Source of the DNA: a virus
DNA: 64,000 nucleotides
IMG/VR virus record: IMGVR_UViG_3300000553_000004
Coordinates: 1 to 64,000 of that record
Reading direction: 5' to 3' (one strand)
Below, piece by piece: positions 7,194-42,310 of the stretch. Position 1 is the first letter of the stretch. Every line of letters starts with the position of its first letter. Made by a program: the position numbers and the translations under genes. Under the pieces are notes generated by a model. The model had not been told where the DNA came from, did not search any database, and saw nothing but the letters and a program-made list of their open reading frames with translations.

Positions 7194-7370
7194 AATTCTT
7201 ATCTTTCTATTTTGAGTTTATAGTTAAGCCGACCTACATCGGATTTCACAACGAATATGCAGAAGTTGGATTATATTTTCATCATAAAAAAATAAATTAT
7301 AATTTATCAAACCAGTTATAAAAAGTTTACTATTTTGATATTTCATGTAGAGTACACACATATAAAACAT

Positions 7371-8765
7371 ATGGAAGACATTAACAATTTAAAACGATTT
7401 GGCAGTGAGTTTCAGGCAAAATGTATCGCCGGATTAGTATCCGACCAACTTTTTGTAGAACGTATTTTTGACATCTTAACCCCCGATTTCTTCGAAAGTG
7501 ATGCAAATAAATGGGTAGTTCAAACTACTATGGATTATTTTTTAAAATACAAGACGTGTCCGACGCTTCAAGTATTTGGTATTGAATCTGAAAAATTAAA
7601 GAGTGACGTTCTTAAAGTATCTATCGTCGAACAATTAAAATATGTCTATACAAGTCAAATAAAGTCCAACGACTTGCCTTTTATCAAGGAACAATTTTTG
7701 GAATTTTGTAAGAACCAAAAGATGAAGAATGCTATTATTTCTTCTACTAATTATTTGAAATTGGGGGAATTCGACCAGATTAGAAAAGTCGTAGATGAGG
7801 CTTTGAAAGCTGGTATGGAAAGAAATCTTGGTCATGAATATTTGACTGACATTGAAAAACGTATGTCTGAAATGTGTCGTGATTCTATCAAGACCAATTG
7901 GCCAGTCATCGACGTCCTATTGGATGGTGGTTTGGCAAAGGGTGAATTAGGATTTGTGGTAGCTCCTGCCGGCTCCGGTAAGTCTTGGATTTTGACTAGA
8001 CTTGGAGCGGAGGCTATGAGAGCTGGTAAAAACGTTCTTCATATTACGTTGGAGTTAAATGAAAATTACGTTGGACTTCGTTATGATAGTTGTTTTACAG
8101 GAATCAATTTTCAAGACATTCGTAAAAATATTCAAGTAGTCAAAGAAAAGATTGATTCAATTACAGGAAAATTATTTATCAAATATTTCCCAATCAAGAC
8201 GATTGCCCCACATACAATTAAGATGCATGTGGAACGCATTCAGATGTTAACGGGAACTAAGATTGATATGATAATCGTTGACTATGCTGACTTACTTAGA
8301 CCGGCAGTAGCCGAACGTAATTCAAATTCTTATAGTGAAGCCGGTTCTGTATATGAAGAATTACGAGCAGTCGCCGGTGAATTACAAATTCCAATCTGGT
8401 CGGCCTCACAGGCAAATAGAAGCGCACATGAAGAAGAAGTTATTCAAGCTCAAAATGTTGCCGACTCATATCGTAAGATTATGACGGGAGATTTTGTAAT
8501 TAGTTTGTCGAGACGTGAAGAAGATAAACAATGTGGAACTGCCCGTATTCACGTTATTAAAAATCGATTCGGAGCTGACGGTATGACTTGGCCGGCATAT
8601 TTTGACGCCGGTTGTGGCGCCATTAAGATTCTTGACCCAGGAACTCCCGAAGGTAGAGACTGTCAGGAAAGAATGAAAGCCGGAGAAGAAAAATTACAAG
8701 ATGTGGTTCGAGACAATTGGAATCAAATCAAAAAGAATAGAAAAATGGAACAAGATAACGAATAA
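7371..8765 (+). CDS. 41: Replicative DNA helicase, DnaB/T4 gp41-like
   Basis: A 464-aa hexameric helicase expected to unwind DNA ahead of the phage polymerase. The first about 150 residues are the helical N-terminal domain; then RecA-like motor motifs: Walker A FVVAPAGSGKSW, Walker B DMIIVDYADLL, the motif-3 region IWSASQANRSA and a probable arginine finger IHVIKNRFG. An upstream in-frame TTG (7335) is possible, but ATG 7371 (MEDINNLKRFGSEFQAK) matches the usual start of this family better. Confidence 0.9.
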   Translation: MEDINNLKRFGSEFQAKCIAGLVSDQLFVERIFDILTPDFFESDANKWVVQTTMDYFLKYKTCPTLQVFGIESEKLKSDVLKVSIVEQLKYVYTSQIKSNDLPFIKEQFLEFCKNQKMKNAIISSTNYLKLGEFDQIRKVVDEALKAGMERNLGHEYLTDIEKRMSEMCRDSIKTNWPVIDVLLDGGLAKGELGFVVAPAGSGKSWILTRLGAEAMRAGKNVLHITLELNENYVGLRYDSCFTGINFQDIRKNIQVVKEKIDSITGKLFIKYFPIKTIAPHTIKMHVERIQMLTGTKIDMIIVDYADLLRPAVAERNSNSYSEAGSVYEELRAVAGELQIPIWSASQANRSAHEEEVIQAQNVADSYRKIMTGDFVISLSRREEDKQCGTARIHVIKNRFGADGMTWPAYFDAGCGAIKILDPGTPEGRDCQERMKAGEEKLQDVVRDNWNQIKKNRKMEQDNE

Positions 8766-12042: not shown

Positions 12043-12375
12043 ATGAGTATGATGGATAATATTAACAGATTGATGGGTAATAAACCCAAGGCATTTTTAG
12101 TTGATGATACGTCCTCCGATTGCCGTAAAGGTGATGTGGATATTGTAAAATCCATGAATGTAGACATCGACCAATTTTCCGATTTTAATAAACTATTATT
12201 CAAACTTCGTACCAGTAAACTTAAAAAATATAAAATTGGTGTAATTCGTGAGAATGATACAAAATATCCATCACAGGTATTATTGAAATTCATAAAGTTA
12301 ATAGACCCAAGTATAAAAATCATCACTTATAAGACTGAGATGGAACTTGAAAGAAAAGTAAGACATTGTAGTTGA
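12043..12375 (+). CDS. Hypothetical protein with a receiver-like fold, 110 aa
   Basis: Start chosen at ATG 12043 because upstream in-frame codons overlap the previous coding region. The alternation KAFLVDDTSSDC, helix, FNKLLFKLR, YKIGVIRE, LKFIKLIDPSIKIITYKT resembles the beta/alpha pattern of a response-regulator receiver (VDD acidic pair, final Lys strand), but I cannot place the phospho-acceptor with confidence. Its TGA lies inside the -35 box of the next gene's promoter. Confidence 0.45.
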   Translation: MSMMDNINRLMGNKPKAFLVDDTSSDCRKGDVDIVKSMNVDIDQFSDFNKLLFKLRTSKLKKYKIGVIRENDTKYPSQVLLKFIKLIDPSIKIITYKTEMELERKVRHCS

Positions 12376-12400
12376 CGTGATATAGGTTGTCGGATATACT
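12372..12400 (+). promoter_or_regulatory. Sigma70-like promoter of the Mom-like gene
   Basis: TTGACG (12372-12377), a 17-nt spacer and TATACT (12395-12400). The upstream stop codon TGA (12373-12375) is embedded in the -35 box, and the downstream ATG at 12409 is 8 nt after the -10, so the mRNA is predicted to start at or next to AUG. Confidence 0.7.
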
Positions 12401-12408
12401 AGATGTAT

Positions 12409-13185
12409 ATGTCAATTGAGAATTATTTTGATGTTACAAAGGTAATAATCAGAAAAATAAACAAAAAAATAGCCAAGAATATGATTGTAAAAAATCACTA
12501 TTCTCATAAATGGTCTTTATGCCAAGTGGCTTATGGTGTTTTCTATATTACCAACGAACAATCACCATTCTTCGATAATGTTGGTGAAAAATTGATAGGA
12601 TGTGTTATTTATGGTCAACCTGTGGGTAGGTCTGCGGCCGAATCCATATCAGAACTTATAAAAATCGATGAAGTCTTCGAATTGACTAGATTGTTCATTC
12701 ATGATGGTTATGGTAGAAATATTGAAAGTTATACAATCGGAGAATCTATGAAGATGGTAAAACGAGATTTTCCGAAAATTAGAGCTATAATTTCCTATGC
12801 TGATGGGGAACAAAATCACAAAGGGACGATTTACCAAGCGTCAAACTTCTATTATCAGGGAAATTCATCATTGGCTCTGATGCCTAATTTTTCAATCTCT
12901 TTAAAAGGACAACCATATGAATGGATGCATTCTAGGACGGTTTCTTCTACATATGGTTCTCACAATGTAGACCATATCAAAAAGTGTATAGGACATACGT
13001 TTTGGAGAAAGAAAGAGTCTACTAAACATAGATATGTCTATCTACTTGGGAGTAAAGTTGATAAGAAAAAGATTCTAAAGAATCTTAAACATGACTTTTT
13101 ACCATATCCTAAAGGAAATAATTATAAAGATGAGATTGAAGAAATTGTGGTAGATAACCCAATAGAAAATCCATTCTTTGGGTGA
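12409..13185 (+). CDS. mom: Mom-like DNA adenine modification protein (GNAT-type)
   Basis: A 258-aa protein resembling phage Mu Mom, which converts adenine in DNA to a bulky modified base and so blocks restriction. Family-like segments: MIVKNHYSHKW, AYGVFYITN, GCVIYGQPVG, FELTRLFIHDGYGRNIES, PKIRAIISYADGEQNHKGTI and YQASNFYYQGNS. The longer frame begins at ATG 12403, but the -10 box ends at 12400, so the second ATG (12409) is the likely start. The C-terminal 70 residues are basic and may bind DNA. Two DruA-like genes lie nearby (15482, 19004). Family call fairly confident; the chemistry of the modification is not readable. Confidence 0.72.
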   Translation: MSIENYFDVTKVIIRKINKKIAKNMIVKNHYSHKWSLCQVAYGVFYITNEQSPFFDNVGEKLIGCVIYGQPVGRSAAESISELIKIDEVFELTRLFIHDGYGRNIESYTIGESMKMVKRDFPKIRAIISYADGEQNHKGTIYQASNFYYQGNSSLALMPNFSISLKGQPYEWMHSRTVSSTYGSHNVDHIKKCIGHTFWRKKESTKHRYVYLLGSKVDKKKILKNLKHDFLPYPKGNNYKDEIEEIVVDNPIENPFFG

Positions 13186-13221
13186 AGTCTTCATATTTAT
13201 AGTGATATAGACAAGACCGCT

Positions 13222-14052
13222 ATGAATGACATAAACAAATTTAGAAATATCGTCAGAGAATGTATCTCTGAAATTAAGAAGGAATCTAACCCAAAGGAAT
13301 CCCTAAAGGAATCTCTCCGTGGTATTGTACGAAGTGTCTTGAAGGAAGCGTCGACATCGACCAAGCCAGACCATACCAAGGAAGAAAAGGAAACTATTTC
13401 TAAGGGATACGAGAAGGATGGTAATCAACGATTGGATAAGACCAATGACAAACAACAGAAGGAACTTGAGACAATAGTTCATGGAATTGACCCTACTTGG
13501 GAAGCTTATTGGGACGACCATAATCAATTGATTGTACGAGCCCAGAATCTTTTATACGTTCGTATCTGTCCTCAATTTGAAGATAAATATAACGTCGATG
13601 CTATGGTAAAGTTGGTTGATAGAGTTAGAGCTATTGCGTTGTCATGGGAGCAGGTCAAAGCATTTATTAAAGCTAATTTCAGTGATTTGAAGAAAACTAC
13701 TAAGGCTGATGTATTGAAACAGACTTCTTTAGACCACTATAAAGATAGAGATGTAAACAAAAAAGAAGCCGGGCCTCGACATGATATTATAAAAAACAGA
13801 GGTGAGAAGAATAATGGTGAAGATGCTAAGATTAAAAACACCAAAAAATCTGATATGGACTATAACGAACCTCAGACCAAGAGGGACGAAGATATGCCAG
13901 ACCAACCTATGAAAAATGTGACTGACCAAGGTAAAGACCCCGAATTCAAGAACAGGGATATTAAAAAAACGGATAAAGTCAAGCCTCAGAAACATAAAGA
14001 TGATAAAAAACTCAAAGCATCTGATAAAAAGACTCCGAAGTTTAAACGTTAA
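13222..14052 (+). CDS. Hypothetical highly charged Lys/Asp-rich protein, 276 aa
   Basis: The N-terminus carries amphipathic repeats (NPKESLKESL, GIVRSVLKEAS); residues about 85-155 form the only compact-looking segment (HGIDPTWEAYWDDHNQLIV); the rest is Lys/Asp/Asn-rich and probably disordered. A TATTTATA motif lies 20 nt upstream. Similar VLKE segments occur in the proteins at 32132, 44594 and 48158. Possibly virion-related; no function assigned. Confidence 0.55.
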   Translation: MNDINKFRNIVRECISEIKKESNPKESLKESLRGIVRSVLKEASTSTKPDHTKEEKETISKGYEKDGNQRLDKTNDKQQKELETIVHGIDPTWEAYWDDHNQLIVRAQNLLYVRICPQFEDKYNVDAMVKLVDRVRAIALSWEQVKAFIKANFSDLKKTTKADVLKQTSLDHYKDRDVNKKEAGPRHDIIKNRGEKNNGEDAKIKNTKKSDMDYNEPQTKRDEDMPDQPMKNVTDQGKDPEFKNRDIKKTDKVKPQKHKDDKKLKASDKKTPKFKR

Positions 14053-14074
14053 TCGTTTATCTTAAACACTCAAT

Positions 14075-14104
14075 AAAACCGTGGTTAATCCCACGGTTTT
14101 TATT
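14075..14104 (+). terminator. Rho-independent terminator
   Basis: Stem CCGTGG (14079-14084) and CCACGG (14091-14096), extended by AAAA/TTTT, loop TTAATC, ending in a T-rich tail. It follows the Lys-rich gene by 22 nt and precedes a new promoter. Confidence 0.85.
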
Positions 14105-14110
14105 TTGCGC

Positions 14111-14138
14111 TTGACTTCTTATATGGATTTGGTATACT
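14111..14138 (+). promoter_or_regulatory. Sigma70-like promoter, leaderless type
   Basis: TTGACT (14111-14116), a 16-nt spacer and TATACT (14133-14138), beginning 7 nt after a terminator. An ATG (14146) lies 7 nt after the -10 hexamer, the spacing seen at several other promoters here. Confidence 0.7.
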
Positions 14139-14145
14139 CTTGTAA

Positions 14146-14202
14146 ATGGCGCAAAATTCCCGAATGGACAAAATTACCAAGTGTGTAAAAATAGACAGTT
14201 GA
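14146..14202 (+). CDS. Possible 18-aa leaderless ORF
   Basis: MAQNSRMDKITKCVKIDS follows a good promoter at the distance predicted for a leaderless transcript. Its TGA (14200-14202) lies within the -35 box of a second promoter. The placement is the only evidence; it may be a leader peptide or a remnant. Confidence 0.3.
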   Translation: MAQNSRMDKITKCVKIDS

Positions 14203-14227
14203 CATTAAAAGAATTATTTGATATGAT
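14199..14227 (+). promoter_or_regulatory. Second tandem sigma70-like promoter
   Basis: TTGACA (14199-14204), a 17-nt spacer and TATGAT (14222-14227). It would give a leader of about 100 nt to the gene at 14333, which has an AAAGGA ribosome binding site. The leader has no ORF longer than about 20 codons and no clear hairpin. Confidence 0.65.
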
Positions 14228-14332
14228 GGGTGTGAAGGTTATCGATAAACAAATTTAAAATGACCTGTGGATTTACGGTAAAATGTTCGATTGTAAATTC
14301 CAAATTTATAGGAACATAAAGGAAAAATAATT

Positions 14333-14740
14333 ATGAACGAAAGAAAAACACAACGAAAAAACAAGACAAAGCAGGTAATTGCGTGGCCCTCACACGATAC
14401 GTATTTTAGTATCGATACTCTAATTGAATCCAATTCCCACATGCTTACTACATCCGGCTCTGATATTACACTTCGAGTTCGATTGAATAAAGCCATCACG
14501 GAAGAAAATCTTGTGGCGGCGATTGGACAAAAGAGTTCCGGTAAAGGTAGACCTCAATTGGTATTCGCTATGAGGCCTGTCAAACAATCTGCCATCGACA
14601 AAGCCACCGCAGATGGAATATCAGTCTCTATGACTAAAATTATGCCTGTCATGGAAATAACATCACAAACGCCTACTCCTATCGTTACACAAGTAACAAA
14701 TATCACTTCCGATAAAACTCAAACAGTTAGTGTTCAATAA
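14333..14740 (+). CDS. Hypothetical protein, 135 aa
   Basis: It has a very basic N-terminus (NERKTQRKNKTKQ), a central folded part (RLNKAITEENLVAAIGQKSS, GKGRPQLVFAMRP) and a Thr/Pro-rich tail. The basic start suggests nucleic-acid or membrane contact. The AAAGGA ribosome binding site and its own tandem promoters support expression. No family recognised. Confidence 0.55.
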   Translation: MNERKTQRKNKTKQVIAWPSHDTYFSIDTLIESNSHMLTTSGSDITLRVRLNKAITEENLVAAIGQKSSGKGRPQLVFAMRPVKQSAIDKATADGISVSMTKIMPVMEITSQTPTPIVTQVTNITSDKTQTVSVQ

Positions 14741-14760
14741 CGTTCGATAATACCATACAT

Positions 14761-14958
14761 ATGATTAAAAAGAAAAAGTCAAAGAAACAAAAATCTAGGC
14801 CAATCGATTTACATATGTATGGTATTTTTGACAATAAAAAGAACACAGTCATAAAAATAAGTTTAGAACAGACTGATATTCAGATGGAGATAGCGTTGAT
14901 GGGCGGATTGAAGTCACATCTAGAAGAATGTGAATTCGATATAAAATTAAGTTACTGA
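14761..14958 (+). CDS. Hypothetical small basic protein, 65 aa
   Basis: It starts with a Lys-rich segment (MIKKKKSKKQKSR), then a short beta-like region. A -10-like GATAAT ends 9 nt before the ATG. The 3' end overlaps the convergent gene by 12 nt. No family recognised. Confidence 0.45.
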   Translation: MIKKKKSKKQKSRPIDLHMYGIFDNKKNTVIKISLEQTDIQMEIALMGGLKSHLEECEFDIKLSY

Positions 14959-15468
14959 TGCATTACCCTCAAACATCATAAAAAATTTAAAGGAATTCTT
15001 TATAGTAAAATCTTCTTTGTAGTAGAAAATTGATACTTCTTTTGTTAGATGGTTCATCGTGGCTTGAATTTTTTGATTTGAACCATATACGATAGGCATA
15101 CTAAAATCCGTATCAAATAACACGGACAACACCGGCGTTAATTTAAAATAATGATAGAACTTCTCCGTTTTATTAACATAATGATATCTTAATGGTGGCT
15201 TTGAATGTTTTCCGTTTCCTTTAATGGCAATCGTCTTTTTAGGCCCCTTCTCAAAAAAGTTCTTAGAATTAATTTCATAATAAAATACCATAGAATTTTG
15301 TGGAAGTTTAACTGTTTTTATAATAGCTAAAGACCCTATTATTATAGGCATATCCATTTTCATGTCGAACAGCGCATACGAAGATGAAGTTAATTTAAAA
15401 CAGTGGAAATACGTCGGTGGTATAGTTTTTATAGTCGATTTGTCGTTGACTTTAGTTGTGATTGACAT
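14947..15468 (-). CDS. Hypothetical protein with two tandem about 45-aa repeats
   Basis: A 173-aa protein containing an internal duplication: YFHCFKLTSSSYALFDMKMD plus MPIIIGS in the first half and FYHYFKLTPVLSVLFDTDFS plus MPIVYGS in the second, each followed by a strand ending FYYE or FYYK. No catalytic motif. Its ATG (15466-15468) is only 13 nt from the divergent ATG at 15482. A TATACT on the - strand (15477-15482) ends 8 nt before its start. Confidence 0.55.
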   Translation of the reverse strand: MSITTKVNDKSTIKTIPPTYFHCFKLTSSSYALFDMKMDMPIIIGSLAIIKTVKLPQNSMVFYYEINSKNFFEKGPKKTIAIKGNGKHSKPPLRYHYVNKTEKFYHYFKLTPVLSVLFDTDFSMPIVYGSNQKIQATMNHLTKEVSIFYYKEDFTIKNSFKFFMMFEGNASVT

Positions 15469-15473
15469 ATAAT
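15446..15473 (+). promoter_or_regulatory. Sigma70-like promoter of the first DruA-like gene, inside the divergent gene
   Basis: TTGACT (15446-15451), a 16-nt spacer and TATAAT (15468-15473), with ATG 15482 after 8 nt. The -35 box and spacer are coding sequence of the divergent gene, whose start codon touches the -10 box. Confidence 0.75.
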
Positions 15474-15481
15474 ATAAGTAT

Positions 15482-16783
15482 ATGTCTGATTTTTTTAATC
15501 AACCACGAATTATAACAGAAAAAGATTTTATTTCTACGCTAAATTCCTATGCCAATAAGGCGTGTAGTCCGGCAGGAAAATATGCCCACAATGACGCATT
15601 CAAATCTGTCACAGGAGAGGATGTCTTTAAATTTGAAGAAAATAAAACTAAACTGATTAATGATTTGAATTTCCTGATTAGTTTAGATGTTGAGGAATTT
15701 ACTTTTCGTAAGAAGTGGGAAGAATTGAGAGACATAAATCCATACATTTCTAAAGTCGATGAACAAACCAAAGCCTTAATTTGGGAACCTACTGACATCA
15801 ACAATGAAGAATTGACTATTGAAGAAATCACGAATCTAAAGCCTGTAGTTGTTGTGGTAGATGATACTTTAGAACGTACTTGGACTACTTTGAGATATTA
15901 TTGTAGTAGCGCCGAATACAATCAGGCCCCTGGCCGATTCATTAAATTTCTAATAAGAGATGAAGTTACTACTAAAGTTTTAGGAGTATGTTCTATTGCC
16001 AGTGACGTTATTTCCATATCCGATAGAGATAAGTATATAGGTTGGACTCCTGAAAATAAACTCAAGGATAAGATGTTACGACATTCCGCTATTGGGACTA
16101 CCATCGTTCCGACTCAACCATTCGGTAGTAATTTTCTAGGTGGTAAACTCGTCGCCGCCATGGTCACGTCTGGCGTTGTCCGTAATGAGTGGGAATGTCC
16201 GTCTGGTGGAGATTCCAATCCAGGAAAGCTGGTTGGTATGACGACTACTAGTTTATACGGAAGACCATCGATGTATAATAGTTTAAAATGGTGGACAGAT
16301 GTGGGGGATTCAAAGGGAAAAATACCAATTAAGCCGTATGAAAAATCGTATGAAGCTTGGCATGGTTGGTTAAAACAACATAAAAAGAAAGAATATGAAG
16401 AGGCCATGACACAAAAAGAGGGTATATCAGGCCCAGTCACAGGCGCAAAGATGAGAGTCTTAAATATGATATTTAAGGCGTGTAACGTCAAACAATCTGA
16501 ATACTGTCATGGATATCAGAGAGGGGTATACTATTCTTGTTTTTATGAAAATACAAAAGAATTCCTATGTAATAAAATTACAATGGATAAATTGGTCATG
16601 AAGCCACTATTTAAAGATGACACCAAATCCATAGTGGACTGGTGGAAGCCAAGGGCTATAGAACGATATAAAAAATTAAAAGCGGCCGGACGGTTGAATC
16701 CTGAGAAGCTGTTTTATAATGATATGACTCATATGGAATATGAAGATGCTAAAAAACGTTTCTTTGATGCTGTAGGAAAATAA
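15482..16783 (+). CDS. DruA-like (DUF4338) protein, 433 aa
   Basis: The central part matches the DUF4338/DruA layout: IKFLIRDEVTTKVLGVCSIA, ISISDRDKYIGWT, and a region corresponding to the NNSRF block of the related protein at 19004. The N-terminal 120 residues and C-terminal 150 residues are additional. DruA is best known from the Druantia anti-phage system, but DUF4338 proteins also occur in phages with unknown roles. Expressed from a predicted leaderless promoter. It could act in DNA modification, superinfection exclusion or another process; only the family-level call is made. Confidence 0.5.
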   Translation: MSDFFNQPRIITEKDFISTLNSYANKACSPAGKYAHNDAFKSVTGEDVFKFEENKTKLINDLNFLISLDVEEFTFRKKWEELRDINPYISKVDEQTKALIWEPTDINNEELTIEEITNLKPVVVVVDDTLERTWTTLRYYCSSAEYNQAPGRFIKFLIRDEVTTKVLGVCSIASDVISISDRDKYIGWTPENKLKDKMLRHSAIGTTIVPTQPFGSNFLGGKLVAAMVTSGVVRNEWECPSGGDSNPGKLVGMTTTSLYGRPSMYNSLKWWTDVGDSKGKIPIKPYEKSYEAWHGWLKQHKKKEYEEAMTQKEGISGPVTGAKMRVLNMIFKACNVKQSEYCHGYQRGVYYSCFYENTKEFLCNKITMDKLVMKPLFKDDTKSIVDWWKPRAIERYKKLKAAGRLNPEKLFYNDMTHMEYEDAKKRFFDAVGK

Positions 16784-16789
16784 AAATGG

Positions 16790-17392
16790 TTAAATTAAAA
16801 TCCAACCATATGACGTTTTACTTTTACCTTGTATAAGATTGTTTATAGCTCCTCGACAATAACTAAATTTTTTACAAAAATCATATCGCCTTCCGTAAAA
16901 TATTTCTTCGGATTTAATGTTTTTGAATGTATAGTTAGTTTGGTCTAAATGTTTATTATCATCTATGTTAATTTTTTTGCCCTTCATTGGCGAACGACGT
17001 CCTTTAAGTTTTTTAGATATTTTAAGTTTTGTTTTTTTGGAATGTTTATATCCTAATGTTCCTCCGCCTGTAGCTGAGAAACTTAAATTATAACAAATAT
17101 TACGTCGATTATTTCTAATTTCATTTAAATATTTTTGTTCTTGTTCTACAAGTTTTTCAATTGGTAATTCTTCAATAATAAAAAATTCAAAATTCGACTC
17201 TCCATATTTATTCCAAGCATTTTGGAGATATTTATTTTCGTGATTATTATTTCTAAGACGATTAATGTGTTCTTTCCATCGTCCATACGTTCCTAAAATA
17301 TTATCCGACCTACCGATATAGTATTTTCCGTTAATTTTATTTATAATTTTATAAATTCCACTTATTTTTATATCTTGACAATAGTTATTCAT
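16790..17392 (-). CDS. GIY-YIG homing endonuclease
   Basis: A 200-aa protein starting with a complete GIY-YIG domain (SGIYKIINKINGKYYIGRSD, catalytic Arg in GRWKEHINRLR, FEFFIIEEL, final Glu in EQEQKYLNE), followed by NUMOD-like DNA-binding segments (GYKHSKKTKLKISKKLKG) and a C-terminal helix-turn region. Start chosen at ATG 17392, not the longer frame, because it directly precedes the domain and lies 5 nt after TATTTATA. It lies on the opposite strand between the DruA-like gene and a small gene. Confidence 0.85.
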   Translation of the reverse strand: MNNYCQDIKISGIYKIINKINGKYYIGRSDNILGTYGRWKEHINRLRNNNHENKYLQNAWNKYGESNFEFFIIEELPIEKLVEQEQKYLNEIRNNRRNICYNLSFSATGGGTLGYKHSKKTKLKISKKLKGRRSPMKGKKINIDDNKHLDQTNYTFKNIKSEEIFYGRRYDFCKKFSYCRGAINNLIQGKSKTSYGWILI

Positions 17393-17397
17393 AATGA

Positions 17398-17405
17398 TAT
17401 AAATA
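17398..17405 (-). promoter_or_regulatory. TATTTATA motif before the GIY-YIG gene
   Basis: On the - strand TATTTATA lies 5 nt before ATG 17392. The same motif precedes several probable late genes on both strands at 3-5 nt. Confidence 0.4.
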
Positions 17406-17447
17406 TCAAGTTGTAAGCAGAACATATAGAAAACATGAAATAATAAT

Positions 17448-17609
17448 ATGGGTCGCACATTTCGAAATAATGATAGGTGGAAGAAGGACAAACATGACCA
17501 GAACTTCCGTAACAGTAAGAAATTCAAAGAACTTAAAGATGGTTATATCCATCCAAAGGCAAACTTACCAAAAGTAGACGCAGAACCAATTGAATCCGAT
17601 GATAATTAA
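17448..17609 (+). CDS. Hypothetical small basic protein, 53 aa
   Basis: MGRTFRNNDRWKKDKHDQNF begins a strongly charged, probably disordered protein with an acidic end (EPIESDDN). The stop overlaps the next gene's start region by 11 nt. Good phase and tight packing support it; no function. Confidence 0.5.
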   Translation: MGRTFRNNDRWKKDKHDQNFRNSKKFKELKDGYIHPKANLPKVDAEPIESDDN

Positions 17610-17838
17610 TATAATTAGTATAGTCTTTTTTCTACTGTTCTCAGTGTGGACTATTTTGTCAGCGTTTTTGATTCGTGGTAACGCCGATAAAATAAAACAA
17701 TTAGACGCTGCCAATAAGAAACTTATAAACGATATAAATTCTTTACAGAGAAATCAGAATATGATAGTATCTTCGTTTAAGGAATTGAATCGTATTATAA
17801 GAAAACATGACAAAGGAACTAAAAAAATCGGTAGATAA
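17599..17838 (+). CDS. Small membrane protein with coiled coil, 79 aa
   Basis: An N-terminal membrane segment (residues about 2-25, IINIISIVFFLLFSVWTILS) is followed by a positive stop and a heptad-rich segment (LDAANKKLINDINSLQ). ATG 17599 was chosen over TTG 17590. It overlaps genes at both ends. Unknown role. Confidence 0.5.
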   Translation: MIINIISIVFFLLFSVWTILSAFLIRGNADKIKQLDAANKKLINDINSLQRNQNMIVSSFKELNRIIRKHDKGTKKIGR

Positions 17839-18340
17839 ACCTAAGACTCGTAAGAAAAAAGAAGAAGGGACTATAAAGGGGATAGGACTGTTTGACCACA
17901 TCAAACATATACGAACTATTCAAGACCCCGATTATTTTAAAGGTCTTACCGACTTAGATAAGAAGTCTTTTAATCATTTCATGATTTTAAAGTCTTTGAG
18001 TATGAATCCTGAAATTTTGGAAGAAGTTTCTACGTTATTCAAGTATTTTGATAAAATCCCCTCCCCACAATTTTACCAACTAATGATTGGTGGTATAATT
18101 CCACCAGACAATTCTAGAAAATTTTATCCTTGGGTAAAGTCTAAGAAAAAACCATATAACGAAAAGTTAATCGAATTGATTTGTACTTATTTTGAAATCT
18201 CAAGTAGTGAGGCAGTTGAATACGTTTCAATATTATCATTAACTGAGTCAGGTAAAAAAGAATTAGAAGAACTTTGTAGAAATTATGGATTGACTGACAA
18301 AGAAGTCGAATCCGCTTTGAAAGGAAACGATAATGAATAA
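17807..18340 (+). CDS. 62: Clamp loader small subunit, T4 gp62-like
   Basis: A 177-aa protein that, with gp44, would load the sliding clamp. The gp62 pattern known from T4-like phages is visible: GLFDHIKHIRTIQDPDYF, DLDKKSFNHFMILKSLSMNP, a helical middle with KIPSPQFYQLMI, then YPWVKSKKKPYNEKL and a helical end (ELCRNYGLTDKEVES). It overlaps the membrane protein before it and the dNMP kinase after it, but is 23 kb from gp44 and the clamp. Family call is by pattern. Confidence 0.6.
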   Translation: MTKELKKSVDKPKTRKKKEEGTIKGIGLFDHIKHIRTIQDPDYFKGLTDLDKKSFNHFMILKSLSMNPEILEEVSTLFKYFDKIPSPQFYQLMIGGIIPPDNSRKFYPWVKSKKKPYNEKLIELICTYFEISSSEAVEYVSILSLTESGKKELEELCRNYGLTDKEVESALKGNDNE

Positions 18341-19040
18341 ACCAATTGTAATCGGTGTCGGTGGATTTGCAAGAGCAGGTAAGGATACCTTTGTAAAAGT
18401 TGCACGTAAGATTTTGGAACGGAATGGATATACAACGAGACGATTGGCATTCGCCGATGTTTTAAAAGATGAACTGGCTCCATTCATACAAAATTATTAC
18501 GGTATAAACGTATGGACGGATAACACTGATGAAAAATCGTTGATACGTCCTTTGTTAGTCGCACACGGTTGCCAAAAGAGAATTCAAACGGAGGGTCAAT
18601 ATTGGATTGATAATATTGATAAGGAGATAAATAAGGAAATCGTTCATTATGAATCTTTCACTGAAAGAGATTTGATACAAAAACATGTGATATTCATTAG
18701 TGATTGTAGATTTCCAAATGAGGTGAGTTGGGCACATCAGAAGTGGGGTGGTTGGTTTGTACACTTAAAGAAATATACAAATATACCCCTTTATAGTAAA
18801 ACGGGCGATAGGGATGGTTTATTTAAAAAATATGATGGCGCCCCTAATGAAGAAGAGGCTAAAAATGACCCGATTTGTATGAAAGATGCAGATTCTCGGT
18901 TGGAGTTGGAAAATGTAATCGAACGAGAACTAAGATTAAGTGGTATTAAAATTACTACTGAGTCGTTGGTAGACAATACTTATCTCAATGAAGAGATTAA
19001 ACTATGTCTAACCAAGTGTCCTTTTTTGACTATCCAGTAA
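18333..19040 (+). CDS. 1: Deoxynucleoside monophosphate kinase, T4 gp1-like
   Basis: A 235-aa P-loop kinase that would phosphorylate dNMPs for DNA synthesis. The P-loop VGGFARAGKDTF is at the N-terminus; AFADVLKDELAPF (nucleotide-binding helix), FISDCRFPNEV and a LID-like DGLFKKYDGAPNEEE follow, in the order of phage dNMP kinases. The start overlaps gp62 by 8 nt behind AAAGGA; the end overlaps the DruA-like gene by 37 nt. Confidence 0.8.
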   Translation: MNKPIVIGVGGFARAGKDTFVKVARKILERNGYTTRRLAFADVLKDELAPFIQNYYGINVWTDNTDEKSLIRPLLVAHGCQKRIQTEGQYWIDNIDKEINKEIVHYESFTERDLIQKHVIFISDCRFPNEVSWAHQKWGGWFVHLKKYTNIPLYSKTGDRDGLFKKYDGAPNEEEAKNDPICMKDADSRLELENVIERELRLSGIKITTESLVDNTYLNEEIKLCLTKCPFLTIQ

Positions 19041-19777
19041 AACCCAATTCATTAATATATTTGGTGGAATGTTCTACACCTGAACAGAATCGATTGTTTA
19101 GGAATACTATTGACAAATATCATAGTTACGTCAAATACAAAGACTCGCCTACTAGAAATATTCGGTGGTTAGTATATGAAGTGGGTAGTGGTAATCATAT
19201 AGGCGCAATAGGATTGTCATCTGCAACTATAGGAGTTAATGTTAGAGATAGTTTTATTGGTTGGGATACTAATACAAAAATTAAAAATCTGTGTCATTTG
19301 GCTAATAATTCTAGATTCTGCTTGGCTACTCCAAATATAACAATTAAAAATTCCGCGTCTTCTACATTAAAACAACTCAGGATTGAAGGAGCCAAACGGT
19401 GGAAGTCTAAATACAATGACGATTTAATCTTATTAGAGACATTTGTTCAACCGGAACGTGCGGAAGACTACAAAGAACATAAATTGAGAAATGGCTCGTG
19501 TTATTTGGCTGATAATTGGACTATGGTAGGAGAAACTCAAGGACATCATATTAGAAAAACTCCTATGAGACTCTGGGAGAAGGAAACCGGCGAAAGGGGT
19601 AGATTGGCTAGGGAACATCCGGAAGAGTGTCTTAAAAAGTATGCCAGCTACTTAGGCGGACATACTGATTCGGGTTATAATGTGACTAAGACGGCCAAGA
19701 AGATTATGTTCTTAAAACCATTAGTTAAAGATTGGAAAGATAGACTTAATCACCTAGTAACAGACGAAAGTAATTGA
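19004..19777 (+). CDS. DruA-like (DUF4338) protein, 257 aa
   Basis: A compact version of the DruA domain: RNIRWLVYEVGSGNHIGAIG, VRDSFIGWD, LANNSRFCLATPNI, IKNSASSTLKQLR, KYNDDLILLETFVQPER, NGSCYLADNWTMVGETQG, then RGRLAREHPEECLKKYA. These blocks are the conserved core of DUF4338. It overlaps the dNMP kinase by 37 nt, so it is co-expressed with replication genes. Anti-phage DruA works with other Druantia genes, none of which are here, so a solo phage function is likely. Confidence 0.62.
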   Translation: MSNQVSFFDYPVKPNSLIYLVECSTPEQNRLFRNTIDKYHSYVKYKDSPTRNIRWLVYEVGSGNHIGAIGLSSATIGVNVRDSFIGWDTNTKIKNLCHLANNSRFCLATPNITIKNSASSTLKQLRIEGAKRWKSKYNDDLILLETFVQPERAEDYKEHKLRNGSCYLADNWTMVGETQGHHIRKTPMRLWEKETGERGRLAREHPEECLKKYASYLGGHTDSGYNVTKTAKKIMFLKPLVKDWKDRLNHLVTDESN

Positions 19778-21678: not shown

Positions 21679-21680
21679 AT

Positions 21681-35439: not shown

Positions 35440-36124
35440 CGGAAAGAAAATTTGGTATAAGTTTTGTCCTAATTGTAATAGAGAACAACAATATTCTACT
35501 TTAAGAGCCGCATCACACGCCACGAAGAGAAATAAACAATGTTTGTTTTGTAAAAATAAAGAAGATGGGAATCCATTTTTCGGCAAACACCATACTATAG
35601 AACATAGAGAAAATTTATCTAAAAAACAATTGGTTAGTTGTTCTTATCGTTATAAAAGAGTTGGTAAAAATCCTGATAAAATTAATAAACGATGTAAATT
35701 TTGTGAAAATGAATTTAAAGTTATAAAGTCATTGCATTTACAAAAATATTGTAAATATGAGTGTGCGTTAAAAGATAATTTTGGATTTCAACCATTCAAA
35801 AAAACTAAACCTGAAAGAAAGTTTGAAGAGTGGCTTAAAATCAACAATATAGATTATAAATCATCATTTCAGTTAAAAGGAAAATTATACGATTTTTATA
35901 TACCATCTAAAAATATATTGGTTGAAATTGATGGAATTTATTGGCATGGAAAAAATTTAAAATATGATGAACTGAATGAAACACAAAAAAGAAATAGAAT
36001 TAATGATAATAGAAAAACTTGTATTGCCAAGGAAAATGGTTATACTCTGATAAGAATTTGGGAAGATGAAATAGAGGACAAAACGTGTATCAAAATATTT
36101 ACATTTCAAGAAAAGATAATATAG
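35357..36124 (+). CDS. EDxHD/Vsr-like homing endonuclease
   Basis: A 255-aa nuclease with two zinc-binding pairs (FCPNCNREQQ and CLFCKNK; CKFCENEFKV and YCKYEC) and a C-terminal domain with GKLYDFYIPSKNILVEIDG, IYWHGKN, and LIRIWEDEI, the same fold as the endonuclease at 3500. Start ATG 35357 has a full AAAGGAG ribosome site 5 nt upstream, inside the small gene at 35284. The last 40 nt overlap the start of DNA polymerase in another frame. It is wedged between two other genes with overlap on both sides. Confidence 0.75.
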   Translation: MTSIVNESEKKNLENITKKRKYPIKVVDGKKIWYKFCPNCNREQQYSTLRAASHATKRNKQCLFCKNKEDGNPFFGKHHTIEHRENLSKKQLVSCSYRYKRVGKNPDKINKRCKFCENEFKVIKSLHLQKYCKYECALKDNFGFQPFKKTKPERKFEEWLKINNIDYKSSFQLKGKLYDFYIPSKNILVEIDGIYWHGKNLKYDELNETQKRNRINDNRKTCIAKENGYTLIRIWEDEIEDKTCIKIFTFQEKII

Positions 36125-38826
36125 TTCATTTGTGGGATGATATGGCGGGATATCGGACGTTCCCATATGAAAAGTATGCTTATAAACGTCATCCAGGCGG
36201 CAACTTCAAATCTCTTTATGGAGATGAATTAGTCAGAGTTGTAAATTATAATGATAAAGACTCTAATCTATTTGAGTCTGATGTTCCCGCTGACATGCGT
36301 GTATTATTAGATTATTATCCCGATTCAGACGAACCATCTACAGGAAATAAAATAGGCGTGATTGATATCGAAATATCTACCGAAGGTGGATTCTCTACTC
36401 CTGACTTGGCAGAACAGCCTATTACAAGTATATCTCTTTACGACTTTGTTACTAGAACGTGTTTCGTTTTTGTTATTGATAAAGAGAGTAAGGTAGAAAA
36501 GAACGAACTAGAAGTAGACCCTTGGTTGCCTTTGGAATGGAAGGTACAGAGTGAAGAAGAAAATAAAAAAATCAAAATCGTCACATTGCCTTATGATAAT
36601 GAAGATGATATGTTGATGAGTTTCATGGATAAATGGCAAGAATGTGCATTTACGATTGTGACAGGATGGAATGTCGACTTCTTCGATATGCCGTATCTAT
36701 ACAACCGCTTGAAGAAGTGTTTGACGGCCAAGGCAGCTAAATGTCTATCTCCGATTGGAGTTTGTTATCTAAATACCCATAGTAAAAAATTGACTATCGC
36801 CGGTGTATCCGTTATGGATTACATCTTATTGTATAAGAAATTCTTGGCTGGTAAAATGGAACCTACTTGGGCATTAGGGCCGATTGGAAAAAAGGTCGTC
36901 GGATTTGGTAAGGTTCAATACCACGGAAATCTAAATGATTTATACAAAACGGATATTAAAAAATTCTTAGAATACAACATTACAGACGTAAAGATTGTAG
37001 TCGCTATTGATGTTAAATTGAAGTTGATTGACCTCTATAGAACCATCTGTCACGTAGGTCATGTTCCATACGAGAGTTTCCATATGCCTGCGAGATATCT
37101 CGACGGCGCATCATTAATGTATCTCCATAGAAACGGCGTCATAGCTCCGAACAAACCGGCTGGTGGACGCGAGGAATATGAGGATAGTATGGAGGATGGT
37201 GAAGAAGGGTTCTCAGGGGCATTTGTTAAAGAACCTGTTCCTGGTAGATATGATTGGGTATTCGATTTGGATTTGACTTCCATGTATCCAAATATCATCA
37301 TTTCTTTAAATATTTCGCCTGAGACTAAGGTCGGTAAAATTATTAAAGCTGAATATAATGATGATTGTAAAGTTGAGAAACGTCGTGGCATCTTAAAAGA
37401 AATCGATGAAATGAAGACGGAGATGAAAGACCGTCTTTGGTCAAGTGAAGATGGTAAGGAAGAATATATTCAACGTCGTTGTCGTGAATTTGATATGGAG
37501 TATCATGTTCGTGAGAAATTGGAAAACTATCATCTTGGAACGACTGAATATAAGAAGGATGAGTTTAGGAATTTAATTAAAGATGCCAATTACTCTCTTA
37601 GTTCTAACGGCGTTCTTTATCGTAGAGATAAGCCCGGAGTTGTACCGACGTTGTTGCAATTATGGTTCCAACAACGTAAGGATATGAGAAAGAAGGCGTC
37701 AGAGTTTAGAAAAGCTGGAAATGTCGAAAAGTATAATTTCTATAATCAACGTCAACAAGTTCAAAAGATTTTGTTGAATTCATTCTACGGTGTATTGGGA
37801 CTTCCGATATTTCGATTCTACGATGTAGATAACGCCGAGGCTGTAACCATGTCCGGCGTCGATATCATTCAGACCACATCCAAAGCCATCAACATTTATT
37901 ACAAGAATGCGTTGGAAGTTGAGACTGGTGACTGGGTAATCTACAGTGATACCGACTCTTGTTTCGTCGATGCCGTTCCGATTATCAAAAAGAGATTTCC
38001 TGATTTGGATTTCAATAATGACGATGAAATGACAAAGGCAATTATGAGTGTCACCACGGAAGTACAGACCTACGTTAATAAATTCTATGACATTATGGCA
38101 AAGAGATTCTTTAATCTTGATGCTCATACATTTGATGCCAAACAGGAAGTTATTAGTAAGTCGTCCTTTTGGTTGGCTAAGAAACGGTATGCTCAGTGGA
38201 TTATTCACAAAGAAGGACATCTATTAGAAAAACCGGAATTAGAAGTAAAGGGTATTGACGTTGTTAGAACTTCATTCCCAATGGCATTTCGTAAATTCAT
38301 GGATTTATTTCTAAGAAAGTTATTAACTTCCGCCCCAAAATCGGAAATAGATGCAATGATTTTAAAAGTAAAGGAAGAAGTTAAAACTTTGCCTGTTCTT
38401 GAAATAGCGAAAAATACATCGGTGAAATTTGTAAGTCAAGACGGAACTAAAAATTATAATCCGGAAAGTAGAAGACCATTACACTTTGAAAGTAAAACTC
38501 CCGCCCAAGCCAAAGCGGCATTGGCCTATAATGATTTAATTGTTAAGATGGGATTAGAAAAAACATGTGAACCAATCTATCATGGAAGTAAAATTAAATG
38601 GGTATATCTTCAAGACAATGGATATGGACTCGATGCTATCGCTATGAAAGGTGATGGTAATGACGCAGACGAATTATTAAAATTCATAGATACTCACGTC
38701 GATAGAAAGAAAATGTTTGAAAATGAACTCAAGAGTAAGTTATCTGACTTCTACGATGTTTTGAGATGGGCATTCCCCAACCCATCCGTCGCAACGGCTT
38801 CAAACTTTTTTGATTTTGGTGGATGA
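36085..38826 (+). CDS. 43: DNA polymerase, family B, T4 gp43-like
   Basis: A 913-aa replicative polymerase with proofreading. Exonuclease: IGVIDIEISTEG (DxE), TGWNVDFFDMPYLYNR and YNITDVKIV. Polymerase: motif A FDLDLTSMYPNIIISL, motif B QKILLNSFYGVLG, motif C IYSDTDSCFVD. The C-terminus ends in a hydrophobic peptide (NFFDFGG) like the clamp-binding tail of gp43. GTG 36085 is preferred, with AGAGG upstream and the family's first strand (IYISRKDNIVHLWDD) preserved; ATG 36142 would remove it. The start lies inside the endonuclease gene. Confidence 0.95.
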   Translation: MYQNIYISRKDNIVHLWDDMAGYRTFPYEKYAYKRHPGGNFKSLYGDELVRVVNYNDKDSNLFESDVPADMRVLLDYYPDSDEPSTGNKIGVIDIEISTEGGFSTPDLAEQPITSISLYDFVTRTCFVFVIDKESKVEKNELEVDPWLPLEWKVQSEEENKKIKIVTLPYDNEDDMLMSFMDKWQECAFTIVTGWNVDFFDMPYLYNRLKKCLTAKAAKCLSPIGVCYLNTHSKKLTIAGVSVMDYILLYKKFLAGKMEPTWALGPIGKKVVGFGKVQYHGNLNDLYKTDIKKFLEYNITDVKIVVAIDVKLKLIDLYRTICHVGHVPYESFHMPARYLDGASLMYLHRNGVIAPNKPAGGREEYEDSMEDGEEGFSGAFVKEPVPGRYDWVFDLDLTSMYPNIIISLNISPETKVGKIIKAEYNDDCKVEKRRGILKEIDEMKTEMKDRLWSSEDGKEEYIQRRCREFDMEYHVREKLENYHLGTTEYKKDEFRNLIKDANYSLSSNGVLYRRDKPGVVPTLLQLWFQQRKDMRKKASEFRKAGNVEKYNFYNQRQQVQKILLNSFYGVLGLPIFRFYDVDNAEAVTMSGVDIIQTTSKAINIYYKNALEVETGDWVIYSDTDSCFVDAVPIIKKRFPDLDFNNDDEMTKAIMSVTTEVQTYVNKFYDIMAKRFFNLDAHTFDAKQEVISKSSFWLAKKRYAQWIIHKEGHLLEKPELEVKGIDVVRTSFPMAFRKFMDLFLRKLLTSAPKSEIDAMILKVKEEVKTLPVLEIAKNTSVKFVSQDGTKNYNPESRRPLHFESKTPAQAKAALAYNDLIVKMGLEKTCEPIYHGSKIKWVYLQDNGYGLDAIAMKGDGNDADELLKFIDTHVDRKKMFENELKSKLSDFYDVLRWAFPNPSVATASNFFDFGG

Positions 38827-40358: not shown

Positions 40359-41111
40359 ATGGAAAAGAAAAAAATCGAAACATTTATAAAAAAGTACAAT
40401 TTAGGTGGAACTATTAACTCCGTCATTTGGACTAATGACAAAGAAGACTTAACGGTAACTGCTATTACGTCTGATAAAAAATTATTCGCCTCTGTCCAAT
40501 TAGAAAAGGGCGCCGTCGGATTTATTGATGGAGTAGAAGTCGGAGTTCTCACCACGGAACAACTTAAAAAGATGTTGACTCCATTGGAAGATAATATTTC
40601 TTTGACATTGGATGTAGATGAAAACGATAAAACGAGAGTTCGACAAATCCTACTCGGTGACACTAAGATTGATTCCAACTACGTGACATCAGAGCCGACC
40701 GCTATTGATGGAGTCCCTTCGATGAAATCAATTCCGCCGTTTGAAGTTGAGATTGTACTTGATGAAACATTTATCACGGCATTTAATAAATCATTCTCGG
40801 CATTGGGTGATGATGGAACCCTTTTTACACTCATCATGAGTAATAAGAAGAAGACATTGCAATTGGTTTTGGGATATAAACAAAATCTATCAAATCGTAT
40901 CGCCATCGATGTCACGACGGTCGCCGGTAAAGATTCTGTAAAGAATCCAATCAGCTTCACGGCTAAAAGTTTAAAGGAAATTCTCTCCGCAAATGGTGAA
41001 GTTGAAAATCCTGTATTAAAGGTGTCAGAAGCTGGATTGGCTAGCATTTCTTACAATAAAGATGGATTCAAGAGTCAATATTACTTGGTAAAAGTTGATG
41101 TTGAAGATTAA
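40359..41111 (+). CDS. 45: DNA polymerase sliding clamp, T4 gp45-like
   Basis: A 250-aa trimeric clamp that tethers polymerase and, in T4, activates late transcription. Length and fold pattern match gp45 (about 228 aa): alternating strands, KYNLGGTINSVIWTNDKEDL near the N-terminus, PPFEVEIVLDETFITAFNKS at the domain boundary, ISFTAKSLKEILSAN and SQYYLVKV at the C-terminus. Position right before gp44 supports the call. Confidence 0.8.
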   Translation: MEKKKIETFIKKYNLGGTINSVIWTNDKEDLTVTAITSDKKLFASVQLEKGAVGFIDGVEVGVLTTEQLKKMLTPLEDNISLTLDVDENDKTRVRQILLGDTKIDSNYVTSEPTAIDGVPSMKSIPPFEVEIVLDETFITAFNKSFSALGDDGTLFTLIMSNKKKTLQLVLGYKQNLSNRIAIDVTTVAGKDSVKNPISFTAKSLKEILSANGEVENPVLKVSEAGLASISYNKDGFKSQYYLVKVDVED

Positions 41112-41150
41112 TAATTTGTTCGACGGTAAACACACACAAAAAAGGAAAAC

Positions 41151-41315
41151 ATGAGTAATACAAATAAAGTATATGGTCTGTTCTATAAAGACCACGGAAA
41201 TTGGAGAACGGCTAATAATAACGTTTATACGTTACAAACCGCCCGTTCTACTAAGACAAAAGTCGCTAAGACTTTGAAGAGCCGTGTAATTATTCGCAGA
41301 GTTATATTCGCCTAA
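41151..41315 (+). CDS. Hypothetical small basic protein, 54 aa
   Basis: MSNTNKVYGLFYKDHGNWRT continues to a Lys/Arg-rich end (TLKSRVIIRRVIFA). AAAGGA lies 5 nt before the ATG, a clear ribosome site. Sits between the clamp and clamp loader in the replication operon; no family recognised. Confidence 0.6.
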   Translation: MSNTNKVYGLFYKDHGNWRTANNNVYTLQTARSTKTKVAKTLKSRVIIRRVIFA

Positions 41316-41329
41316 TAAAAAGAAACGAT

Positions 41330-42310
41330 ATGGACTTCATTGAAGAGAGCAGAAAACCAAAGAAAGACCATTCACTGTGGGTAGAAAGGTATAGACCTTC
41401 CACTATGGACAGGTATATTGGTAATGATAGTGTAAAGGAGACATTTTCGCAGTTCATAAAGAAAGGCGATATCCCCCACGTTCTTCTGTTCGGCCCCGCC
41501 GGTACAGGTAAAACTTCGTTGGCAAAACTTTTAACAAAGAACATTAACTGTGATGTGATGTATATAAACGCATCCGACCAGAATAGTGTTGACGATGTTA
41601 GAGTTAAGATGAAGAATTACGCCTGTTCGGCGGGCTTCAAACCATTAAAAGTAATCATTCTCGATGAGGCTGATAGATTGTCACCTGAGGCGCAAGGCGC
41701 TTTAAGAAATATGACAGAAACCTATTCCGCCCATACGAGATTCATTTTAACGTGTAATTACGTGGAAAAAATTATAGCTCCATTGTCTTCAAGGATGCAG
41801 ACGTTTGAAATAAAGCCGGTATCAAAGAAGGATGTGGCATTAAGGTTGGTAGAGATTTTACAGATTGAAAAGGTATCATTCACACAGGAAGATGTCATTT
41901 TCATTGTAAATACATACTATCCTGATATAAGAAAGGTAATCAACTTTGCCCAACAATCATCGATAGAAACTACTGATGATGAAGGCAATGTATCATTGAA
42001 AATTAAGATTTCCAAAGAAAATGCAGTAGAGACTGATATGTTGAATCGACTTACCGATTTGTTAAAAACTCCACAGAAAGCCGGAGTATTTGATGAGATT
42101 CGACAACTCACTACGGAATTCGATTCATCATCGTTGGAAACGGTCGTTCATCATCTTTTCGAGAAGGTAGACGATTATGCTAAAGGTAAGGAAGCATTAA
42201 TTATATATGAATTAGGTGAACTTAACTGGCAAATGCAGCTAGTTATACCAAAGGTCAGGGACATAACGTTTCTGGCGTGTATTTACAAAATACTCAAACA
42301 TTTAAAATAA
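41330..42310 (+). CDS. 44: Clamp loader large subunit, T4 gp44-like AAA+ ATPase
   Basis: A 326-aa AAA+ protein: LWVERYRPSTMDRYIGND at the start, Walker A LLFGPAGTGKTSLAK, Walker B VIILDEADRLS, sensor 1 FILTCNYVEKI, and SSRMQTFEIKP (arginine finger SRM). Same order as RFC-type loaders. With gp62 (17807) it loads the clamp encoded just upstream. Confidence 0.92.
   Translation: MDFIEESRKPKKDHSLWVERYRPSTMDRYIGNDSVKETFSQFIKKGDIPHVLLFGPAGTGKTSLAKLLTKNINCDVMYINASDQNSVDDVRVKMKNYACSAGFKPLKVIILDEADRLSPEAQGALRNMTETYSAHTRFILTCNYVEKIIAPLSSRMQTFEIKPVSKKDVALRLVEILQIEKVSFTQEDVIFIVNTYYPDIRKVINFAQQSSIETTDDEGNVSLKIKISKENAVETDMLNRLTDLLKTPQKAGVFDEIRQLTTEFDSSSLETVVHHLFEKVDDYAKGKEALIIYELGELNWQMQLVIPKVRDITFLACIYKILKHLK

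What the first reader, a model, noticed from the sequence alone, without database searches (positions are those of the whole stretch)
12409..19777. Mom-like protein and two DruA-like proteins near replication genes
A Mom-like modification protein (12409) and two DUF4338/DruA-like proteins (15482, 19004) lie within 7.4 kb, mixed with gp62 and dNMP kinase. Two are expressed from predicted leaderless promoters and the third overlaps dNMP kinase. Mom hypermodifies adenine in phage Mu. DruA belongs to the Druantia defence system but is found here without its partners. The set may be a new DNA modification or inter-phage competition system.
Basis: partly seen in the sequence, partly recalled or inferred. 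Interest (0 to 1): 0.65.

Follow-up and report, generated by a model that had tools for sequence, protein, structure and literature searches.

The report
Mom and DruA enzymes beside replisome genes
A large T4-type phage carries three related acyltransferase-fold enzymes among its DNA-replication genes, one like the DNA-modifying Mom enzyme of phage Mu and two like the bacterial protein DruA; sequence, structure and gene order indicate that Mom and DruA are one enzyme kindred that probably decorates phage DNA, though the chemistry is untested.

Summary
Observation confirmed: a Mom-family gene (12409-13185) and two DruA/PF14236 genes (15482-16783; 19004-19777) lie among T4-type replication genes; mom and dru2 have near-leaderless sigma70-type promoters and dru3 overlaps dNMP kinase. 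New beyond the finding: (1) DruA is kin of Mom. Profile comparison gives 94.8%, E=5e-8, against 0.4% for generic GNAT controls; Mu Mom is the top PDB match of both DruA-like models; Mom and short DruA share H, R, N-x-x-S (the Ser changed in inactive Mu Mom) and G-x-x-Y-x-A. (2) In related phages both families stand together, up to a five-gene DruA-DruA-Mom-Mom-Mom array, and interleave with gp41, gp43, gp45, gp44 and gp62. (3) dru2 is a syntenic core gene; in most cyanophages inspected it sits between gp44 and gp62; it has lost the Mom serine. All three genes are under purifying selection. No Druantia DruE-type helicase was found. Best reading: a replisome-linked set of Mom-type acyltransferases that hypermodifies phage DNA against restriction. 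Kinship is well supported; chemistry and substrate are inferred. Prior art: DUF4338 was already called a GNAT, and DruA-like proteins were reported in cyanophages.

The parts
12372..12400 (+). promoter-like site of mom: TTGACG-17-TATACT, ends 8 nt before ATG 12409
   Evidence: similar boxes before relatives' genes; genome-wide enrichment
12409..13185 (+). mom-like gene, Mom-family GNAT, 258 aa; H32, Y33, R96, N106, S109, D134, Y144 (260-aa ORF numbering) match Mu Mom H48, Y49, R101, N111, S114, D139, Y149
15446..15473 (+). promoter-like site of dru2: TTGACT-16-TATAAT, ends 8 nt before ATG 15482
15482..16783 (+). dru2: long DruA-like protein, 433 aa; helical N-terminal part, GNAT-like core about 115-365, helical C-terminal part; invariant Gly (G220/G221) where Mom and short DruA have Ser
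19004..19777 (+). dru3: short DruA-like protein, 257 aa; N116-x-x-S119 and G164-x-x-Y-x-A-x-N-W172 motifs kept; overlaps dNMP kinase by 37 nt
17807..18340 (+). gp62-like clamp loader subunit (context; syntenic next to dru2)
   Evidence: PHROG 225; synteny
18333..19040 (+). deoxynucleoside monophosphate kinase (context)
   Evidence: PHROG 139; synteny
16790..17395 (-). GIY-YIG homing endonuclease between dru2 and gp62 (context; absent at this place in most relatives)
7335..8765 (+). gp41-like replicative helicase (context; the homologue abuts the five-gene DruA/Mom array in L151)
   Evidence: 47% identity to the L151 homologue
36085..38826 (+). gp43-like DNA polymerase (context)
   Evidence: 43% identity to the L474 polymerase
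40359..42310 (+). gp45 sliding clamp (40359-41111) and gp44 clamp loader (41330-42310) (context)

Best explanation
The three genes encode members of one GNAT kindred, the Mom/DruA group. They work as a set of nucleobase modification enzymes expressed with the phage replisome. Each transfers a small acyl or aminoacyl-derived group to an exocyclic amine of a base in newly made phage DNA, as Mom of phage Mu does to adenine N6, so that host nucleases no longer recognise it. Paralogues probably differ in sequence context, base or group added. The Mom-like protein and dru3 keep the Mom-type active-site motif. dru2, the most widely conserved, has an altered motif (N-x-x-G-G-K-L) and so probably uses another donor or acts as an accessory factor near the clamp loader. 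Shown here by computation: family membership, Mom-DruA kinship, shared motif, gene arrays, replisome linkage, purifying selection. Inferred: DNA as substrate, the group added, protection from restriction, any contact with the clamp loader.
For: Pfam/PHROG hits. HHalign short-DruA against Mom: 94.8%, E=5e-8; the same DruA profile against two generic GNAT profiles gives 0.4%. Mu Mom (8bv8) is the top PDB match of dru3 (Foldseek E=1.5e-3, prob 1.0; VIA Z=10.0) and of dru2 in VIA (Z=9.5). The chain of the entry titled 'inactive mutant S124A' has Ala where the Mu genome encodes Ser in R-N-S-E-S-R; that Ser is S109 in the Mom-like protein (27/27), Ser or Thr in the dru3 family (51/51) and Ser in bacterial DruA (68/68). 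An L151 protein hits Pfam DruA (1.6e-8) and PHROG Mom-like (2e-5); 22 ORFs hit both HMMs. Arrays DruA-DruA-Mom-Mom-Mom, DruA-Mom-Mom-Dru2 and Mom-DruA, and interleaving with gp45/gp44/gp62/gp43. dru2 is next to gp62 in every locus reaching that far; in most cyanophages inspected the homologue lies between gp44 and gp62. dN/dS about 0.03-0.10.
Against: No modified base was or could be measured. GNATs act on many substrates, and a shared fold shows no function. dru2 has no direct sequence link to Mom (0.3%), only through DruA (98.3%) and structure, and it lacks the Mom serine; its Z=9.5 to Mom is tied with other GNATs within 1 unit. The dru3 model is of low confidence (pLDDT 60.8). dru2 often occurs without mom or dru3 near it (28 of 42 loci with both flanks). 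HHalign E-values are for single comparisons.
Confidence: 0.55

Rival explanations
1. The DruA-like proteins, or all three, are acyltransferases of another substrate: a replisome or host protein, or a tRNA. dru2 next to gp44/gp62 would modify the clamp loader or polymerase, or host tRNA during takeover.
For: GNATs are the commonest protein N-acetyltransferases (general knowledge), and other GNATs score near Mom for dru2; dru2 is tied to clamp loader genes and often occurs without mom.
Against: DruA profiles match Mom and not generic GNATs; DruA genes recur in one operon with Mom genes.
Confidence: 0.22
2. dru2 is a non-catalytic GNAT-fold accessory factor of the replisome (binding DNA, a nucleotide or the clamp loader), while only mom and dru3 are enzymes.
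For: The Mom-type serine is replaced by invariant Gly in 45 of 45 sequences; extra helical N- and C-terminal parts; strict gp62 linkage.
Against: A new invariant motif (Q-P-F-G-x-N-x-x-G-G-K-L) suggests an altered rather than lost donor site.
Confidence: 0.15
3. One reading: DruA-like proteins are defence or inter-phage competition factors, as in Druantia.
For: They match the PADLOC DruA models.
Against: No DruE MZB domain in the record; core synteny with replication genes rather than a variable island; several bacterial DruA relatives are IS-like multicopy repeats.
Confidence: 0.07
4. They are decayed relics of IS-borne DruA genes with no function.
For: Bacterial DruA genes occur on multicopy repeats with sharp ends.
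Against: dN/dS about 0.03-0.10 in all three genes, invariant motifs, conserved synteny.
Confidence: 0.01

Closest known systems
Mom of phage Mu (PF25680; PDB 8bv8), adenine modification enzyme
   Same: Window mom: same Pfam family over the whole domain, same H-Y, R, N-x-x-S, D and Y positions. dru3 and bacterial DruA: same fold, Mom is the top PDB hit, same H, R, N-x-x-S and G-x-x-Y-x-A motifs.
   Different: Mu has one mom gene at its right end; here mom-type genes are several per genome and sit among T4-type replication genes. dru2 has N-x-x-G-G-K-L in place of N-x-x-S. The base and group modified here are unknown.
DruA of Druantia type I and IS-borne DUF4338 proteins (PF14236)
   Same: dru2 and dru3 match the family above its cut-off; the dru3 family matches bacterial DruA by HHalign at 100%, E=6e-40.
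   Different: No DruE-type helicase; replication-cluster context; dru2 is longer and has a changed motif.
DruA-like proteins of Synechococcus phages (Phold paper, PMC12774648; S-PRM1) and DUF4338 protein of Pelagibacter phage Mosig
   Same: Homologous to dru2 (25-32% identity); in the cyanophages mostly between gp44 and gp62.
   Different: Published as structural look-alikes of DruA; the link to Mom, the arrays and the clamp loader synteny were not stated in the passages read. One record, PQ898602, is annotated 'methylcarbamoylase mom' at this gene.
Mom-REase fusions of jumbo phages (Iyer et al. 2021, PMC7824862)
   Same: Mom-family GNATs in large phages, proposed for DNA self-protection.
   Different: No fused nuclease here; instead several unfused Mom/DruA paralogues.

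Membership tests
Mom family (window mom, 12409-13185) | Pfam Mom domain above curated cut-off | tested here: met
   156.8 bits against a cut-off of 27.1
Mom family (window mom, 12409-13185) | Active-site residues of Mu Mom, including the Ser changed in the inactive mutant | tested here: met
   H32, Y33, R96, N106, S109, D134, Y144 align with H48, Y49, R101, N111, S114, D139, Y149
Mom family (window mom, 12409-13185) | Converts adenine in phage DNA to its modified form | not testable with these tools
   needs nucleoside mass spectrometry
DruA family PF14236 (dru2, dru3) | Pfam DruA domain above curated cut-off | tested here: met
   83.5 and 77.5 bits against 27
DruA family PF14236 (dru2, dru3) | Conserved core of bacterial DruA: R-F-L..., N-L-A-S, E-T-F, G-T-C-Y-R-A-A-N-W | tested here: inconclusive
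   largely met by dru3, only in altered form by dru2
Druantia defence system | DruE helicase partner | tested here: not met
   no MZB domain (PF09369) in the 215-kb record, which may be incomplete
Mom/DruA kindred (proposed) within GNAT | Profile-level similarity to Mom beyond generic GNATs | tested here: met
   short DruA (bacterial plus dru3 family): 94.8%, E=5e-8, controls 0.4%
Mom/DruA kindred (proposed): dru2 | Direct profile match to Mom and the N-x-x-S serine | tested here: not met
   0.3%; invariant Gly. Linked through DruA (98.3%) and structure only

The most novel reading that the evidence does not exclude
DruA proteins as a whole (phage, IS-borne and Druantia) are Mom-type nucleobase modification enzymes, and a broad group of T4-type phages builds several of them into the replisome operon, so that the phage genome carries several different hypermodified bases or sites made at the fork.
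Probability: 0.35. Interest if true: 0.82.

Novelty: new variant of a known kind. Interest (0 to 1): 0.62.

Why it matters
DruA has no known activity in what I could read; placing it with Mom gives Druantia type I and the many DUF4338 genes a testable chemistry. It also points to a large group of environmental T4-type phages as a source of multi-enzyme DNA hypermodification, tied by gene order to the clamp and clamp loader, which would link modification to replication.

Tried and rejected
HHalign with shallow alignments did not link DruA to Mom (0.25-0.8%); only deeper alignments did, so the claim rests on these plus structure and motifs. Druantia membership was rejected (no DruE-type domain). 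A DUF6998-like gene beside dru3 in some relatives was looked for in our genome and not found. DNA methyltransferase motifs: a crude [DNS]PP[YFW] scan gave no convincing methyltransferase. dru3 has no tblastn match in annotated phages. Searches of the papers held for a stated Mom-DruA link found none, but subscription papers and most preprints are not held. A 2020 paper on Mu Mom, looked up by a DOI from memory, was not held. No library of cellular predicted structures was on hand.

Full report
Setting. The window is the first 64 kb of a 214,733-base virus record with a T4-type replication set: gp41 helicase, ribonucleotide reductase-like gene, gp62, dNMP kinase, then gp43 polymerase, gp45 clamp and gp44 clamp loader.

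The Mom-like gene matches Pfam Mom (7e-46) and PHROG 1384 (1e-49). The genes at 15482 (dru2) and 19004 (dru3) match PF14236 DruA (2e-23, 1e-21). The start at 12409 rather than 12403 is supported by homologues. Promoter-like sites end exactly 8 nt before the starts of mom and dru2, similar boxes precede many relatives' genes, and genome-wide 27 of 237 genes carry such a site 5-12 nt before the start against 0.36% of random positions. This phage has few Shine-Dalgarno-like motifs (13 of 237). dru3 overlaps dNMP kinase by 37 nt.

The genes are functional. dN/dS is about 0.03-0.10 for all three wherever dS is not saturated. dru2 was found in 80 kept viral loci at 50% identity or more, and every locus with 5 kb downstream has gp62 next, usually followed by dNMP kinase. 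Of 42 loci with both flanks, 8 have mom and dru3 too, 5 only mom, 1 only dru3, 28 neither. So dru2 is the core gene and the trio is a subset; the loci are related, so these counts are not independent.

What DruA is. A published analysis calls DUF4338 a GNAT domain (PMC10853773). I tested whether it is closer to Mom than to GNATs at large. AlphaFold2 models were made for dru2 (pLDDT 84.0) and dru3 (pLDDT 60.8, low). For dru3 the two best Foldseek hits among 350,542 PDB chains are the two chains of Mu Mom (E=1.5e-3, probability 1.0), and Mom leads the VIA list (Z 10.0, 3.1 A, 111 residues). For dru2 Mom leads the VIA list (Z 9.5, 4.2 A, 185 residues), tied within 1 unit with other GNATs. HHalign of a short-DruA profile (68 bacterial and 51 phage sequences) against 27 Mom proteins gives 94.8%, E=5e-8, aligning H-Y, R-x-x-I, N-x-x-S and G-T-x-Y-x-A-x-N-W. 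The same DruA profile against two generic GNAT profiles made from bacterial genomes gives 0.4%. Twenty-two phage ORFs hit both HMMs at E<1e-4, and one L151 protein hits Pfam DruA (1.6e-8) and PHROG Mom-like (2e-5).

Active site. The PDB entry title calls 8bv8 the inactive mutant S124A. In the compared stretch (chain residues 67-232) the chain differs from the Mu genome translation by Ala for Ser in R-N-S-E-S-R, S114 in 231-residue numbering. That Ser is invariant in Mom (27/27) and in bacterial DruA (68/68), and Ser or Thr in the dru3 family (51/51). In dru2 it is an invariant Gly (45/45), within Q-P-F-G-x-N-x-x-G-G-K-L. So mom and dru3 have the outfit of Mom, and dru2 an altered one.

Gene arrays. 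In L151 the gp41 helicase is followed by five tightly packed, mostly overlapping genes: DruA, DruA, Mom, Mom, Mom. In L474 the order is DruA-Mom-Mom-Dru2-gp43-gp45; in L349 gp43, a glutaredoxin-like gene, gp45, Mom, gp44, gp62, Mom, DruA (core gene names from homology and reading); in L129 Mom overlaps DruA downstream of dNMP kinase. Over 132 further loci there were 36 Mom-Mom, 13 Mom-Mom-Dru2 and 10 Mom-DruA neighbour sets; these loci came from searches seeded with array members and some contigs are near-identical, so the numbers are not frequencies. In most cyanophages inspected the dru2 homologue lies between gp44 and gp62; S-B68 and the two pelagiphages have it near gp46/gp47. Our genome has a second, divergent Mom at 196295-196732 on the minus strand.

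Mechanism. The simplest account is a set of Mom-type acyltransferases made with the replisome that modify bases of new phage DNA and so block restriction. Membership, kinship, motif, arrays and linkage are shown; DNA as substrate and the group added are inferred from Mom, known for adenine modification in Mu (record annotation). The main rival is another substrate (protein or tRNA), strongest for dru2. Defence as in Druantia has little support: no DruE-type domain and core, not island, context. Bacterial DruA genes include multicopy units of about 2.8 kb with sharp ends and 95-99.8% identity, so they are often IS-like cargo.

Novelty. Known: Mom in phages; DUF4338 as GNAT; DruA look-alikes in cyanophages (PMC12774648). 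New as far as the held literature shows: the specific Mom-DruA kinship with a shared active-site motif, their joint arrays, and the replisome embedding.

Noticed in passing
G000:C1:195899-196801 (-), outside the window (Mom match 196295-196732): A second, divergent Mom-family protein (300 aa, Pfam Mom 99 bits over profile positions 2-142) far from the replication genes.
   Followed up: partly
whole 215-kb record: About 11% of genes of 100 aa or more have a sigma70-like promoter whose -10 box ends 5-12 nt before the start codon, 30 times the random rate, while Shine-Dalgarno-like motifs are rare: a leaderless or near-leaderless gene class in a T4-type phage.
   Followed up: partly
L148:5525-6001, L139:5529-6002, also L142 and L144: A small DUF6998-like protein, with a D...E-x-R pattern that might be nuclease-like, is encoded immediately upstream of the dru3 homologue; no homologue in our genome.
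   Followed up: partly
L234, L235, L240, L241, L268 (one Arenicellales chromosome); L193, L194: Bacterial DruA (DUF4338) genes lie in multicopy repeats of about 2.8 kb with sharp ends and 95-99.8% identity, as expected of an insertion sequence.
   Followed up: partly
window 15464-15486: 7-bp inverted repeat GACATAT/ATATGTC spanning the -10 box and the start codon of dru2; not kept in the relatives looked at.
   Followed up: partly
window 14333-14740: 135-aa protein of unknown family that lies upstream of dru2 in nearly all related loci.
   Followed up: partly
window 16790-17395 (-): GIY-YIG homing endonuclease with NUMOD3 motif between dru2 and gp62, an intergenic insertion absent from most relatives.
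   Followed up: no
window 20419-25465 (-): Run of glycosyltransferase- and methyltransferase-like genes on the minus strand just downstream of the trio, guessed from sequence only.
   Followed up: no
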